A DNA stretch of 64,000 bases, taken from contig OY987247.1 in the NCBI GenBank assembly GCA_963920765.1, positions 2,852,001 to 2,916,000 on the forward strand, written 5' to 3'. The notes under the pieces were generated by a model. That model was not told the origin of the DNA. It did no database searches and saw only the letters and a program-made list of their open reading frames with translations. The stretch is from Ulota crispa. Taxonomy: Eukaryota > Streptophyta > Bryopsida > Orthotrichales > Orthotrichaceae. Each line of letters starts with the position of its first letter. The stretch's first letter is position 1. The position numbers and the translations under genes were made by a program. This document shows positions 16,300-40,766 of the stretch, piece by piece.

Positions 16300-18749
16300 A
16301 TGGTTAGAGAGACAAACGCGGGAGCTTTCTACGACAAGCTTCGGAAGGCGGTGGCGACGTCTGTGGGGTCTCCGCTGCTGATATTTCCGTCCGCCGCAGA
16401 CGTGGATTCCCTCTGCGCTCTGAAAATCGTAACCCACCTTTTGGTCCAAGATTCAGTTCGCTACTCCGTGTACCCAGTGGGCGGGTTCCAAAGCATCCAG
16501 AGCCTGGCAGGTGAATCACTGAGATCGGAGGATGACCCTATCGTGATTCTCCTCATCAACTGGGGCGCTTCTCGCAATTTGCACCAGCTGCTGCAACTCG
16601 GTTCCAAAGTGCAGGTGTTTGTAGTGGACAGTCATCGACCCATTCATCTGCACAACTTGAATGACTCGAATCCCCAGGTTACGGTATTATTCACAGAGGA
16701 CGATGAGTCGCAAGCCGACATGCCGTACGGGTTCATGTTGAGTAGGCTTTCGAGTTTCGCCTCCACGTATGATATCAATCCAGATCTTTTTGAAGACTCG
16801 GACTCTGATTCGGATTCAGATTCTGATGACGAGGAAAGGAGGAGGAGGAAGAGGCGGAAGACAGGCAATGGCGATGATGAGAACCATCGCGAAGAGGAGC
16901 TTCTGAAGGCGGAGTATTACCGCATGGGCTGCTTCCATGGCCGACCATCAGGATGTCTCATGTTCGACATCGCCCACACTCTGCACAAGAACACAAACGA
17001 GCTTCTCTGGCTTGCAGGTGTGGCCTTGACAGATCAGTTCGTACATGAACGCATAAGCAAAGAGCGATACGATTCCACCCAATCCGAGCTGGAAGGGTTT
17101 GTAGCGTTGGCTGGCAATCTGGAGAGCACTACCAGCGTAACTCTCAAGGACGGAACACGAGTACGTGCACCAGACGTATCCCGAATAATCTTCGACGAAG
17201 AGCCTCGCCTGATGCTTCTCAGAGAATGGAGCTTGTACGAATCCATGATGTGCTCCTTCTACTTTGCACCGAAGCTGAAGACCTGGGGTGACAGTGGTTT
17301 GAAAACAATGAAACTGCTGATTGCCAAGATGGGGATCTCGCTTGCAGAATGTCAGCAGCAGTACCAGTATATGAAGAACGACACCAGGAAAGGGTTGAAA
17401 CGGATGCTAGAGAGTGTGGGCAAAGAAGCTGGGCTTGGAGATCTTTACTTTCGAAGTCTCTACAGATTTCATGGGTACAGTGATCAAGTATCAGCGGCAG
17501 ATGTTGTGTATGGCGTCACAGCGTTGTTGGAAGCCTCAACGACCGATGTTAAGAAAGATTGGACAGATAGCTTCTGTACTGCCTTGGAAGCTCTCTCTCC
17601 GGACAAGTGGGACCATCTCCGAGCTGGAATGCAGCTTGCTATCAAGGTGCAGCGATCGTGTATCAGTATTGGCAGTGCTGCAATTGTCAAAAAAGGCGAC
17701 ATCAAAATGTGCAAAGCTTTCAGGTGCCTTATCTTTCCATTGCCTCTCCTCTTCAAATATCTACTCCCTTCAGATTTCGTCATGTAGTATTGCTTCCACC
17801 AAAATGTGTGATGAATAGTGTCACTAAAGAGCTTATGACAAGTTGCCACATTGGAAAAACTGGTAGCAAGTTGAGAGTAAAGTCAAGATATCCCTTGGGC
17901 AGTGACGGCCCTTTTACTAAAATTTCATTATCTAAGAAAAGCTACATATGTTTTTGCGCTAATTTTACTTGGATTTTGTTTGTTATGCAAATCATAATTC
18001 ATTTGTTGTTGACTTCTCTTTTGCTCATGATGATTTTTGGTCAATAATAAGGTAGCAGCACCCATAACCGTCAAATTAAGGGTTTTGAACATAAAATAAA
18101 CATCTAGCAAATTATAGGATCCTATTAGCAAGAGGAAAATGATAAGTTTGCACTTCTGAATGTATTATTTGGATACTGTGAGAATAAGTTGTGAATTTTC
18201 AAAGAGCTTATTGCAATTGCACCTAATACCAACAGTAAGGTTTCATGTTTACATATTGTACATCCGTGTAATTGCATCTATTCACTTCCACAATATTTCC
18301 AAGATGGTTATGGGTACAGTGATGGTTTTGGGTGTTGCTACCGTAGGAGATCAGCACCATAACTGTGTGAGTGTGGTTGCAGGTACTTTGAGCTTCCCAA
18401 GTCTATAGACGCTGAGCTGCTGGCACACCCGCTGTCTCTGACCAAGCTCTGCTACTTCGTAATGGATTCATTGAAGGAGCAAGGCCGGGCAGTGAAGCCC
18501 ATGATCTGTTATGGTATCATTTCAGGGCCAAAGAATGAGGCTCTTGTTGTTGGTGTTTCCCACCGCCCTCGTCTTGGAGCTGCAAACGGCAACAGGTTCG
18601 GCTTGGTCTTCAGAGCCATTGCTGAGAAGATTGGCTCCAATTTCAGTCACGATGCGTTCGAGTCGTCATGGATTCATTTACCTGCTGACGATGTCACTCG
18701 GTTTATGCAGGAGTTGCAAACCTCTCTCGCCAGTTATAATTCCCTGTGA
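16300..18749 (+). CDS. CDC45: CDC45, CMG helicase subunit
   Basis: Two exons, 16300-17723 and 18383-18749, join in frame (AG/G) to about 596 residues, a normal length for plant CDC45. CDC45 binds MCM2-7 and GINS to form the replicative helicase. It has a RecJ/DHH-like fold, and the corresponding N-terminal motifs are visible: IFPSAADVDSLCALKIVTHL (about residues 28-47) and VFVVDSHRPIHLHNL. A long SD/DE linker followed by basic RRRRKRRK lies around residues 164-190. It is encoded by a GATTCG-type hexamer repeat near 16795-16833. The second exon carries the conserved C-terminal block (SKPMICYG-like, here AVKPMICYGIISGPKNEAL). The single intron (17724-18382) holds a copy of a dispersed repeat. 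The gene is divergent from TIMELESS 6.4 kb away. Confidence 0.96.
18051..18342. mobile_element. Dispersed inverted-ended repeat, copy 1, inside CDC45 intron
   Basis: The element is bounded by GGTAGCAGCACCCATAACC on the left and the inverted GGTAGCAACACCCAAAACC on the right. Its body matches the element at 31494-31805 in the same orientation over nearly its whole length, with scattered differences and small indels. It has no coding capacity. It looks like a MITE. Target duplications were not clear. Confidence 0.65.
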
Positions 18750-35651: not shown

Positions 35652-36315
35652 CATTCTCAAATTCAAGAACAACGTTTGTAGCTTCTAAGGAAGTGCTGAA
35701 AAGCAGAGAGACTCCGAACAGCTTCTGTTCCACTTTCTAAAAACAGGAATCTGAACATGAGGCTCCCATGTAAGGTAGAGGTCCCCTGTAAGGTACAGTA
35801 GAGGATACAAAACCTATGGTTCAACTCAATAAGTGGTGCAACAATGAATTGGCTATATGTCTAGGGCCACTGATCCTTGAATAGAACTAGAGTTTTCTAC
35901 CGCCATTTACAGTGTTTTACCCTCCCACTTTAAAATTGCGTAAGAAGTTCATACACAGTGAAAAAAATCGATCTCAACAGATTTGGCTCTTGTATCCAAA
36001 GATCGCACCACAGACCTGCACATCTCCCAAAAATCACGCTTCTAGGTGTGCTGAAATGCTTAAAGAGAAGCTGACTGTGTTCTCTACCTTATTCAAAAGG
36101 GAAGTTGCAGTTACCTTCCTTGCCTCTGCAACTATAGCAAACCAGGGTCTCTGAAGTTTGGCTTGTGAAAACTCCTCCAAAAAAACGGGTGATTCCATCA
36201 GCCGGCTCCATCTTCGACAAACCCATCGGAGACGCAAGAAGTCTCGAATGGGCAACAACGTGAGAATCTTAAAGATGATGTGATCTGGGAGTTCACTCCA
36301 AATCTCCGGGTCCAT

Positions 36316-37736
36316 CACATCGTCGTTTCGAGGGGGGTTGCTCCCCTTGATGGGGAGCAACGCACATGGCTTGAAGTGAAGTGGCAAATGGGTGAACGAA
36401 TGCCCCCACATGGGAATTCCTTGGAAAGCAGCAAAGGATACCTAAACTGGACTCTGATACCCCTTTTTACCAACACCAACTCATTTAATTAGTTGAACTA
36501 ATTAGCAAATAGTGCAAGCATGACTTGGCTAATCATCTACTGATCTTTGAATGAAGATGAGGTTATCAACCTCCCAGTTCGAAATGCATTAGAACTTGCA
36601 TAATGGTGAACATTTGATCTCAACAGATTCGGCATTGATATCCAAAGTTACCTCTCTACAGCTCTGTAGTGACATTCCAAAAAAGACTCTTACATATGTG
36701 GCATTACATACGATTGCCCAAATAATATCCCCTATCTCAGAAACTGGAGAGAAGAGCTTACAAAGAAACCCGTGTACTTGGTTACTTTGATCAATTTGAT
36801 AGGCCCCGCCTCAGTCTCATTCTGCACAGTATAGAGTAGCGACTCCAGTAACACTTAACTCCCTGTACCCTGCCAGATCAAAACAAGCATCGGAAATTCA
36901 CAAGCACGCAATGCGAAAATGCTAACATGCCTGAAACAACGGTATAATCAAGCTATGCGTAAGCGATACTTACATGATCATGAACTGATAAGATCTCACT
37001 GCAAATGTTCTCAATTCGAAGAGCACGGTCCTGTATAGTAGCAACAATGCTAACAAGCATAAATGCATGTGATACACTGCAATGTGAAAGTTAGGGTTTT
37101 AGGGTTAAAGATGGTATTCCAAGGAGAGGAGGTATTGCAAAGCGGTGCCTGCTGACCACCCTTGTCACACTGCAAGTACTTCGTCCGGACTGTTCACCTC
37201 TTCCTCTGACGATGCAGCCTTTCATGACACTAGAACAGGCATCGAACCATTTGTTGATGGTACTCAAAAAGTGTCAACTATCTGCTATAATCTTCAAAGG
37301 TCACAAATAGTGGAAAACCAAAACAATAGAACTACATTTTTCAAACAGATGTAATTGGACTGGAACTGCACAGGAACGGATGTCATTAGTTCGAATTCCG
37401 TCAACAAACAGTACCTCACCTTACTTGATAGTGTACACAAACCTTCAACCCTAAAAAGGAGCAGCAAAGATAGCATCTAACGCATTCAAACTAAGGTGCA
37501 AGGGCGGGGCCCATAGATGTCTTTCAGCAGAGTGCAACCAAGTGATTATATTTTTAATTCAACACATTGTCATTTTGCGGAACAAGCAGAATGCTTTGCA
37601 TTCAATACCCGAGGAAATCTACTACTTGCATGCACCACTCATGATTCTACTTGCCACCTTGTTTATGGAGCTATTTTTTGGTGCAAGTTGACGACTAAAA
37701 CACTCCCATCTTCATTAGGAGTACCCCATGCGGAAC
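36316..37736. other. Spacer between F-box gene and GPN2
   Basis: This holds the F-box promoter and leader and the GPN2 3' UTR. I see no conserved exon or repeat. Short frames at 36596-36790 and 37145-37354 have no recognisable domain. Confidence 0.5.
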
Positions 37737-40700
37737 TTAGTGTTGAGAGTCAACATCATCACCGTCGCCGTCCTTGATGTACTTCTCTTGAATCGCCATC
37801 GTCGTAGAACCAATGTTAAGGCACATAACGTCTCCTGTACAGCATTAGTAATTGCATAAACCACACTTACAAAATATTTTACTCAGCAATGGTATGCTAA
37901 TAATGAATCTGGAAGTAGTAGTATCTACAAACGACACAAAATGAAAGGATATCTATCATAATCCCAGTTGGTGGGGGCAGCAGCAAGTTTGCTGAACTCG
38001 TTGATATTGCCCTCGATCCCTCTGAATACATAGCCGTTACTTTTGTCAATTATCTTCAAGAGGTCCATCACACTTTCCTTATCCTGAATACAAATCACAA
38101 GAAGTCAATCAGGTGCCTTCAGGTCAGGGTAATTTCAAGAAAGATACGAAGAGAATAAAAGAGAGACTTGACTACTGACATGCAGGGTATAGACAACATT
38201 ATAAAAGGAAATTTGAACACGATCCCTTACCTTGCACTTATTGCAACATGAGCACCACTTTGTAAATTCACGAACGAAGTAAAAGTAGATTAAGTATATA
38301 GAAGAGCTTTAACCAAAGCACAAATATAGATTGCAACAACGAGTGGTACATGAGATTTTCAGAAGCGGCATGGTAAGTGTTTACAGACCTGTATATTCAA
38401 CGTTGTGAAGCTTACGAGACCATAGTCTTCTACAACCTCACACAACTCCTTCGTCAACTTCCTGCAAAAAGGCCAACAAATAATGTCACTACGATAACCT
38501 TCAAATAATACCAGTAGATATTCAAGCCTTGCTTGCAACCAGCATCCTGAACCATAAAATCAACCTTCAGAAACCAAATACTTTGGATCGATCGCATTGG
38601 CAGAGGCTCACGCAATTGCAAACAGCACTCACCCACGACCAAACGATCAGAGAGATACCTATACTTGGCAGACCTAGGATCGTTATCCAAATGATCTTGG
38701 AGGTATGAGAGATCTTGAACATCAGTGTAAAAGTCGAGATTAAAAGCTGCCACACACGGTCCCATCTCATGAATTAAGACAAAACCACATTGACAATTGA
38801 AAATTCTACATCACACATAACCTGGGCAAAGATATACTAATTCATCTACAAATCAATTACACAAAGAAAAGAGACGAGTGGAATAGTTAAGTCGTGAAAT
38901 CCGAATTTCGGTTTTCCAAGTAAGTCAACTCGTCAATGGTAAAGGGCGTTTATTTTTGGCTAAAATTTTCAATATGCTTTCAAACTTGATGGGATCACCA
39001 AAGGTTAATGAACTAGGGGAAAATATCCAATTTAACATTAGAGCTAGTTGTGCTAGAATACTGTAGCCAGGAATTGAGCAGCAAAGTTACCAAGTTTGCC
39101 GTATTGCTCAATCAAATCAATCTTTGACAACACATTGATATGTGGAAGCTCCAAGTGGAGCATAGTCGACAGCGATATCAAAAGAGCAGATACATATTTC
39201 CCAGGATCGCTGCATAAGTGAGCATCTACTAGATGTACGGCTGTGAGCTGCACTCAAAACATTGGAAGCAACATAAGAGAACAACAATACCATGAACAAG
39301 AATTATATTTGTAGAAACCTGCATATACTGTTGATACAGTCGTGATCTCCAGAACTAATATGAACCATAACAAAGACAGCTGGACAACATACAGGAAGAG
39401 AAACGTACACGATAATCCCATTTGTTCGCCATTTCTAAAATTACGTTTTTTGCATTAGAGTGTAGCGTGAAGAGCTCCACTTGCCCAGGGAAGTCGAATA
39501 GTAGGTAATGGTCTGCAACCAATACACAATTAGAACGATACAGTCGCCAGCGCATGCAATTAGTCAAAAGGCGAATGTCTTACTAAAGCACCCGTTCTAA
39601 ATCCGAACTAGGACTCACATGCAAAATGATCAAGGTGAAGAGAGTAATCAGAGACTTCATTAGTTCCCATACATAGAAACGCCCCTCAGAAATATTTGCA
39701 AACAACTTAAATGATGTGAGGTACATGACTAAGACCAAAAGAATGCAATACCTTTGGTAAGTGGGCGAAGCTTATCCTGTAACCAATCTATGTTCTTCTC
39801 CAGGTAGTCCATGCAATAAACAAGCCCTGCATTGACACCCACACACTGCTTAATCTCTCACGAGCTCTCCCATTCAAAAACACGGTAGTTGAAGCAACCA
39901 AGGTAAAACAGAATGGCCTGTGTTTGCTCCTCATCCAGCCGAACTAATCAGAATGGGCTTAACCGATGTGAATAGAATTACCTCCATTTGGTCCAAGATC
40001 GTACTGAGACATCACATCTTCCAGTTTAATGAGGTCTTCAATATTGACAGCACATTCATATCTAAACTTCGTGAAGGATTGTAGCTGAGTACTGTACTAT
40101 CACAATGAATGCCGTAGAGATGACACTTGAAGGCCGTGTTCACAAATGCGGCTAAACTTAGCAAACCATATACCAATTTTTTTTGAAGCTAAAAAAGTGA
40201 ACATCGGTGTTAATTCTGAATTTTTAGCACATTCAACAGTGCTTTTAACCACTTCAGCTGATGTTGAGAACCATATTTAGGATCACTACTTGAATGTACT
40301 GGAGAAAACACGTGCCGGACTTCTAGACACATGATAATTCATTCTTAGATTTTCACATAAGAAGCTGCTAAAGAAGGCATTGGACATATCTGAGACTGGA
40401 TTATCCGTTAATAAAGGATACGGTACGTTATCATTTGCTGGATCCAGATTGATGACTGCGGTCTTCCTGCAAGAAGAACAGTTAAACGAAATCAGCACAT
40501 CAAACCCTAAACCCTGCACATTACATACGGAACTGTAAACCCTAAACCCGAGCACGTCAAAGAAAATCTCAAATCAATCGTTCAATCACATCGCTGATAA
40601 CGCTAGACATTTCCACACAGACAATTTAATCAACGCACCGGATCAAAACAAGAACATAAAACCGTGAAACTAACCTGCCGATTAGATTAAGAAACTGCGA

Positions 40701-40766
40701 CATGCCATTGCAATACGTGGTCTTCCCGGAGCCAGCAGGCCCGATCACAATCTGACCAAATACCAT
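37737..40766 (-). CDS. GPN2: GPN-loop GTPase 2 (QQT1-like)
   Basis: Ten exons, 40675-40766, 40422-40466, 39982-40061, 39752-39826, 39409-39512, 39091-39247, 38659-38746, 38389-38461, 37953-38083 and 37737-37803, join in frame to about 303 residues, the usual family length. GPN GTPases assist assembly and nuclear import of RNA polymerase II and related complexes; the Arabidopsis homologue QQT1 is needed in early embryos. Visible motifs are the P-loop GPAGSGKTT (residues 9-17), the family-defining Gly-Pro-Asn loop at about 69-71, the DFPGQ switch at about 104-108 and the SKID base-recognition motif at about 173-176. Splicing is GT-AG except the last intron, which has AT-AC ends with U12-type signals. 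The gene is divergent from the DprA-like gene. Confidence 0.95.
37804..37952 (-). other. U12-type AT-AC intron in GPN2
   Basis: The intron begins ATATCCTTT right after the exon end GATTATGATAG, which is the exact U12 5' splice consensus. It ends CCTTAACATTGGTTCTAC before GACGATGGCG. The CCTTAAC element matches the U12 branch-point consensus, with the likely branch A at 37816, 12 bases from the 3' end. Removing this 149 bp intron restores the frame [15 protein letters not shown], matching the conserved GPN2 C-terminus. No GT-AG alternative gives that result. Confidence 0.88.

What the first reader, a model, noticed from the sequence alone, without database searches (positions are those of the whole stretch)
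37804..37952. U12-dependent AT-AC intron at the 3' end of GPN2
The intron starts ATATCCTTT, contains CCTTAAC with the branch A 12 bases from the end, and ends in AC. All ten exons sum to 912 bases in frame only if this intron is removed with AT-AC ends. AT-AC introns are a small minority of U12 introns, which are rare themselves, and a GT-AG gene finder would mis-annotate the protein's C-terminus. Retention could regulate GPN2, hence polymerase II assembly.
Basis: partly seen in the sequence, partly recalled or inferred. Interest (0 to 1): 0.7.

Follow-up and report, generated by a model that had tools for sequence, protein, structure and literature searches.

The report
Genuine minor-spliceosome intron in plant GPN2

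Summary
On the minus strand, GPN2 (Arabidopsis QQT1) has 10 exons, 40766-37737, 912 nt with stop, 303 aa. Intron 9 (37952-37804) has a 9/9 U12-type donor (ATATCCTTT), branch site TGCCTTAAC (8/9) with its A 12 nt from the end, and AT-AC ends; the full motif averages 0.01 per simulated window. The genome also encodes two U12 snRNAs, one U6atac, CENATAC and TXNL4B/DROL1, and CBP20 with its known AT-AC intron.

Corrections: frame alone does not force AT-AC; three GT-AG pairs and a tandem AC acceptor also keep it. AT-AC is 13-26% of U12 introns in four plants (PMC7367187).

Novelty is low: QQT1 is a published essential U12-intron gene (PMC5853960). Actual splicing, and the intron's position in other plants, could not be tested. 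The only U6atac gene found has an altered 5'-splice-site box, which complicates the machinery argument and deserves follow-up.

The parts
37737..40766 (-). GPN2/QQT1-like GPN-loop GTPase gene, 10 exons, CDS 912 nt incl. stop, 303 aa
   Evidence: Spliced model translates without internal stop; Pfam PF03029 E 3.8e-82; 5 PDB sequences matched, four of them GPN-loop GTPases or ATP(GTP)-binding protein by name and one called GTPase
37804..37952 (-). Intron 9: U12-type AT-AC intron, 149 nt, phase 2
   Evidence: 5'ss ATATCCTTT 9/9, branch TGCCTTAAC 8/9, A 12 nt from end, AT-AC ends
37815..37823 (-). Branch-site motif TGCCTTAAC of intron 9; its second A (37816) is 12 nt from the intron end
   Evidence: pairs at 7 of 8 positions with the GUAAGGAA element of this genome's U12 snRNA
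37801..37803 (-). Tandem alternative acceptor (TAC|GAC|): use of 37801 would delete one Thr, 302 aa
37835..37932 (-). In-frame GT-AG pair lying wholly inside the AT-AC intron (possible weak alternative or twintron-like pair, 320 aa product); its donor GTTTGTAG looks poor by eye
   Evidence: no RNA evidence, donor not scored
40062..40421 (-).
   Evidence: 5'ss GTATCCTTT 9/9, branch ATCCTTCAC 7/9, A 10 nt from end
37953..38083 (-). Exon 9, 131 nt, ending ...NWDYD plus two bases of the R codon
37737..37803 (-). Exon 10, 67 nt, encodes [21 protein letters not shown] and stop

Best explanation
Intron 9 of GPN2 is a U12-type AT-AC intron removed by the minor spliceosome. By the established scheme (recalled), U11 and then U6atac read the 5' site ATATCCTTT, U12 pairs with the branch sequence CCTTAAC, and the AC 12 nt downstream is the acceptor. 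Exon 9 (...WDYD-R) joins exon 10 ([25 protein letters not shown]). As an A-type minor intron it should depend on TXNL4B/DROL1 and CENATAC. Retention would end the protein after 8 foreign residues (290 aa) and remove the last 21 residues. Intron 2 of the same gene is a U12-type GT-AG intron, so full GPN2 mRNA would need the minor spliceosome twice. Shown: the sequence signals, the frame, and machinery genes. Inferred: actual splicing, its rate and any regulation.
For: 9/9 donor and 8/9 branch at 12 nt; the seven introns other than 2 and 9 match the donor consensus at only 3-6 of 9 positions. Frame and protein family. Chance 0.01 per simulated window. Same genome: U12 snRNA twice, 101.3 and 96.6 bits, with GUAAGGAA; U6atac at 80.9 bits; CENATAC/CCDC84 exons, E 3.7e-27 and 1.1e-18; a TXNL4B-type gene scoring 140.7 bits to TXNL4B against 60.9 to its U5-15kD paralogue. 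CBP20 in this genome has exons of 224, 139 and 34 nt followed by a 151-nt ATATCCTCT...AC intron, matching the lengths given for Arabidopsis and rice, with an AT-AC U12 intron in all CBP20 genes studied (PMC5932401 passages). Arabidopsis QQT1 is a documented U12-intron gene whose splicing fails in 31K and 48K mutants (PMC5853960, PMC4892727).
Against: No RNA evidence. No other plant genome could be compared, so conservation of this position is untested. 3 GT-AG pairs and 17 non-GT-AG pairs (two of the 17 are the proposed AT-AC pair and its tandem variant) keep frame at both ends. The only U6atac gene found pairs with this 5' site at 4 of 6 positions, one a G-U wobble, instead of 6 of 6 for the Rfam consensus; that search scored only 46 of 15,217 candidates, so other copies may exist. 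U4atac, U11 and U11-48K searches did not complete. ATATCCTTT...CCTTAAC spaced 90-120 nt is not enriched genome-wide: 3 hits against 16 for the reversed control (that range excludes the window's own 122-nt gap).
Confidence: 0.95

Rival explanations
1. A U2-type GT-AG intron nested within the stretch (37932-37835, 37935-37832 or 37932-37832) is the real one, giving a 318-320 aa protein with 15-17 extra residues; the U12 motifs are coincidental.
For: 3 of 355 GT-AG pairs keep frame at both ends; the 3' side ...TACTAATGCTGTACAG|G looks by eye like a fair U2 acceptor.
Against: The donors (GTCGTTTG, GTTTGTAG) look poor by eye (not scored); it leaves a 9/9 U12 donor and a branch site at 12 nt as coincidence (0.01 per simulated window).
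Confidence: 0.03
2. Twintron-like arrangement: the AT-AC U12 pair and the inner GT-AG U2 pair are both used, as in Drosophila prospero.
For: The inner in-frame GT-AG pair lies wholly inside the AT-AC pair; prospero is listed as a twintron in PMC2831892 (passage).
Against: Weak-looking inner donor; some in-frame GT-AG pairs are to be expected among 355 tried (no formal null was run); no RNA data.
Confidence: 0.03
3. The same U12 AT-AC intron, but with the acceptor at 37801 rather than 37804 (tandem AC), giving 302 aa.
For: Both AC sites are in frame; branch distances would be 12 and 15 nt, and the CBP20 intron here has 16 nt.
Against: 37804 is the first AC downstream of the branch motif.
Confidence: 0.1

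Closest known systems
QQT1 (At5g22370), Arabidopsis GPN2-type gene with a U12 intron
   Same: ATP/GTP-binding QQT1 with documented dependence on the minor spliceosome (PMC5853960: part 1 of 5 of the text, section 14, and passages). That QQT1 is the GPN2 orthologue is recalled
   Different: Which Arabidopsis intron is U12-type, and whether it is AT-AC, was not stated in what I read; position could not be compared
CBP20 U12 AT-AC intron of land plants
   Same: AT-AC, U12 branch site, splits off the C-terminal coding part; found in this same genome (PMC5932401 passages)
   Different: Different gene; branch A 16 nt from the end and donor ATATCCTCT (8 of 9)
GPN-loop GTPase family minor introns
   Same: PMC6865273 (passage) lists the GPN-loop GTPase family as 100% minor-intron-containing genes (human by context; the passage does not name the species)
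   Different: Intron positions not given in the passage; here GPN2 carries two U12-type introns and the GPN3-like gene one, at different positions
Twintrons (prospero)
   Same: An in-frame GT-AG pair sits inside the AT-AC pair
   Different: Inner donor looks weak; no evidence of use

Membership tests
U12-type (minor) intron | Highly conserved 5'ss RTATCCTTT | tested here: met
   ATATCCTTT 9/9; consensus letters recalled; that 5'ss and branch site define the class is from PMC3584512 passages
U12-type (minor) intron | Branch site TTCCTTRAY close to the 3' end | tested here: met
   TGCCTTAAC 8/9, A 12 nt from end; consensus in PMC5932401 passage
U12-type (minor) intron | Spliced by the minor spliceosome in vivo | not testable with these tools
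   No RNA data for this genome
AT-AC (A-type) subtype | AT at the 5' end and AC at the 3' end | tested here: met
AT-AC (A-type) subtype | Host encodes the A-type factors CENATAC and TXNL4B/DROL1 | tested here: met
   roles from passages in PMC11039992 and PMC8280824
AT-AC (A-type) subtype | Canonical U6atac that pairs with the 5'ss | tested here: inconclusive
   One U6atac found, box altered, 4 of 6 pairs; only 46 of 15,217 candidates were scored
Minor spliceosome parts U4atac, U11, U11-48K | Genes present in the host | not tested
   Searches for RF00618, RF00548 and PF05253 did not complete
Intron orthologous to the Arabidopsis QQT1 U12 intron | Same position and phase | not testable with these tools
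   No plant genome to compare; prokaryote genome scan gave none
GPN-loop GTPase | PF03029 domain with a GPN motif | tested here: met
   PF03029 E 3.8e-82...[10 protein letters not shown]...
GPN2/QQT1 rather than GPN1 or GPN3 | Orthology to GPN2 | tested here: inconclusive
   By elimination: the other two PF03029 loci resemble GPN3 and GPN1 by eye (against the alignments). No GPN2 reference was available; the window protein's best PDB match is GPN3. No tree was built

The most novel reading that the evidence does not exclude
In this plant GPN2 is gated twice by the minor spliceosome (intron 2, GT-AG; intron 9, AT-AC). The 5' sites of both would be read by a U6atac whose 5'-splice-site box has been rewritten (UGAGCCGAG for the consensus UGAAAGGAG) while the splice sites stayed canonical. 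That would mean minor-intron 5' sites here are selected with only a partial U6atac helix.
Probability: 0.1. Interest if true: 0.65.

Novelty: new member of a known kind. Interest (0 to 1): 0.2.

Why it matters
It is a clean case where annotation restricted to GT-AG introns would probably give GPN2 the wrong C-terminus. It adds that GPN2 carries two U12-type introns of different subtypes in this plant, tying an RNA polymerase II assembly GTPase (function recalled) to the minor spliceosome. Arabidopsis work already shows that QQT1 expression rescues the 31k minor-spliceosome mutant (PMC5853960), so the concept is established.

Tried and rejected
Frame-only argument: I enumerated single-intron replacements (355 GT-AG, 265 GC-AG, 481 AT-AC, 554 AT-AG, 1047 AT-AA, 309 GT-AC pairs). 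In-frame solutions that keep both ends: 3, 0, 5, 4, 2 and 6. Only those from 37952 have the U12 donor (four of them), and of these only 37804 and 37801 lie at a U12-like distance after the CCTTAAC branch site.

Genome-wide motif counting: ATATCCTTT N{90,120} CCTTAAC gave 3 places against 16 for the reversed control. The window's own gap is 122, so it lay outside the range. Dropped as uninformative; the 3 places were printed but not assessed for genes.

Conservation in other species: the genome-contig scan with the GPN2 protein gave no relative (6 stretches matched a pattern, none confirmed). I know of no plant genome in the collections other than the window's own.

Literature: nine searches., which asked for GPN2 with minor-intron terms, returned 0. 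One search listed 20 of 72, none with GPN2. Searches listed only 20 of 615, 54 and 654. One search (At5g22370 with U12) returned only PMC5853960. Kim et al. 2010 (PMC3027169) is not held. Of PMC5853960 I saw part 1 of 5, section 14 and passages; of PMC4892727, PMC3422263, PMC6865273, PMC5932401, PMC11039992, PMC7367187, PMC3584512, PMC2846911, PMC2831892 and PMC8280824 passages only.

GPN1-like locus: read by eye in part, no U12-like donor noticed; not scored.

Full report
What is there. The region 40766-37737 on the minus strand codes a GPN-loop GTPase in ten exons. Five PDB sequences match it: GPN-loop GTPase 3 best, then a GTPase, GPN1, a second GPN1 and an ATP(GTP)-binding protein. The window's genome (275 Mb, 157 contigs) has PF03029 matches at two further loci, which by eye resemble GPN3 (on C1) and GPN1 (on C6). 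The window gene is therefore called GPN2 by elimination; no GPN2 reference was available.

The intron. Intron 9 (37952-37804) begins ATATCCTTT, ends TTCTAC, and has TGCCTTAAC (37823-37815) with the second A 12 nt from the end. Of the nine introns, seven match the U12 donor consensus at 3-6 of 9 positions; introns 2 and 9 match at 9 of 9. Intron 9 also has the 8/9 branch site. The combined pattern is found once in the window and averaged 0.01 in 300 simulations. The U12 snRNA of this genome carries GUAAGGAA, which pairs with this branch site at 7 of 8 positions.

Frame alone does not decide: three GT-AG pairs and several non-GT-AG pairs also keep frame, and a tandem AC gives a one-residue-shorter protein. 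AT-AC ends are 26% (Arabidopsis), 23% (soybean), 22% (rice) and 13% (maize) of U12 introns in Table 2 of PMC7367187 (passage), though 4.8% in a transcriptome-based set quoted by PMC5932401 (passage). Intron 2 (40421-40062) is a second U12-type intron, GT-AG subtype, with branch ATCCTTCAC (7/9) 10 nt from the end. Retention of intron 9 would give 290 aa ending in YPFILCRL.

Is the machinery there? U12 snRNA: 2 hits, 101.3 and 96.6 bits. U6atac: 1 hit, 80.9 bits. CENATAC/CCDC84, which promotes splicing of AT-AN minor introns in human cells (PMC8280824 passages): two exon matches over cut-off. DIM1 family: 7 exon matches; those on C1 come from a TXNL4B/DROL1-type gene (140.7 bits to TXNL4B, 60.9 to the U5-15kD paralogue). 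DROL1 mutations cause splicing defects of AT-AC U12 introns in Arabidopsis according to PMC11039992 (passage). Searches for U4atac, U11 and U11-48K did not complete by the machine (RF00618: 13 calls from 29 to 90; RF00548; PF05253).

Independent control in the same genome. These are the lengths that PMC5932401 gives for Arabidopsis and rice; in all CBP20 genes that paper studied, the next intron is U12 AT-AC (passages; in Selaginella the second exon is 3 nt shorter). Here that intron is 151 nt, ATATCCTCT...TACCTTAAT...AC, with the branch A 16 nt from the end. So an AT-AC U12 intron exists in this genome at a known conserved place. The GPN3-like gene has a 137-nt intron GTATCCTTT...TAG with a weak branch (CACTTTGAC, 6/9, 11 nt).

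Against the reading. There is no RNA evidence and no other plant genome to compare. The single U6atac found has UGAGCCGAGAG where the Rfam consensus has UGAAAGGAGAG. Its helix with the donor falls from 6 of 6 to 4 of 6 pairs (one a G-U) for GPN2 introns 2 and 9 and GPN3, and from 5 to 4 for CBP20. A search for the canonical 20-mer with up to 2 mismatches found 2 places, neither of which Rfam calls U6atac, and a DNA search found no second copy. The family search scored only 46 of 15,217 candidates, so a missed copy is possible. The gene has an upstream element ATACCATAT (at -64; at -68 in both U12 genes) and a TATA-like box at -30, so it is not obviously dead. Either a canonical copy is missing from the assembly or the search, or the species' U6atac has really changed. 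The canonical donors in GPN2 (twice) and GPN3 favour the first.

Known or new. QQT1 is a published U12-intron gene in Arabidopsis: its splicing fails in the 31K and 48K mutants, and its cDNA rescues 31k (PMC5853960, PMC4892727). The GPN-loop GTPase family is listed as 100% minor-intron-containing genes, human by context (PMC6865273 passage). [quoted passage not shown] The finding is a correct, well-supported new instance of a known kind.

Noticed in passing
L013 1501-1628 minus (own genome C4:3240167-3240294): The only U6atac gene found has UGAGCCGAG in place of the conserved UGAAAGGAG 5'-splice-site box, with upstream element and TATA-like box present; pairing with canonical U12 donors drops from 6 to 4 of 6.
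   Followed up: partly
   Followed up: yes
L011 3707-3571 (minus), GPN3-like gene: U12-like GT-AG intron (GTATCCTTT, weak branch 6/9) at a position where GPN2 has no intron.
   Followed up: partly
L014 and L015: Two U12 snRNA genes about 15 kb apart on C4 with similar upstream regions; shared upstream element ATACCATAT (the recalled plant USE is RTCCCACATCG).
   Followed up: partly
window 36441 (minus): Another GTATCCTTT, just upstream of an ORF that looks by eye like an F-box protein (36034-36411); 0.64 such matches are expected per simulated window.
   Followed up: no
window 16300-17787 (+): Long ORF (495 aa) that looks like CDC45 (recalled resemblance, not searched).
   Followed up: no
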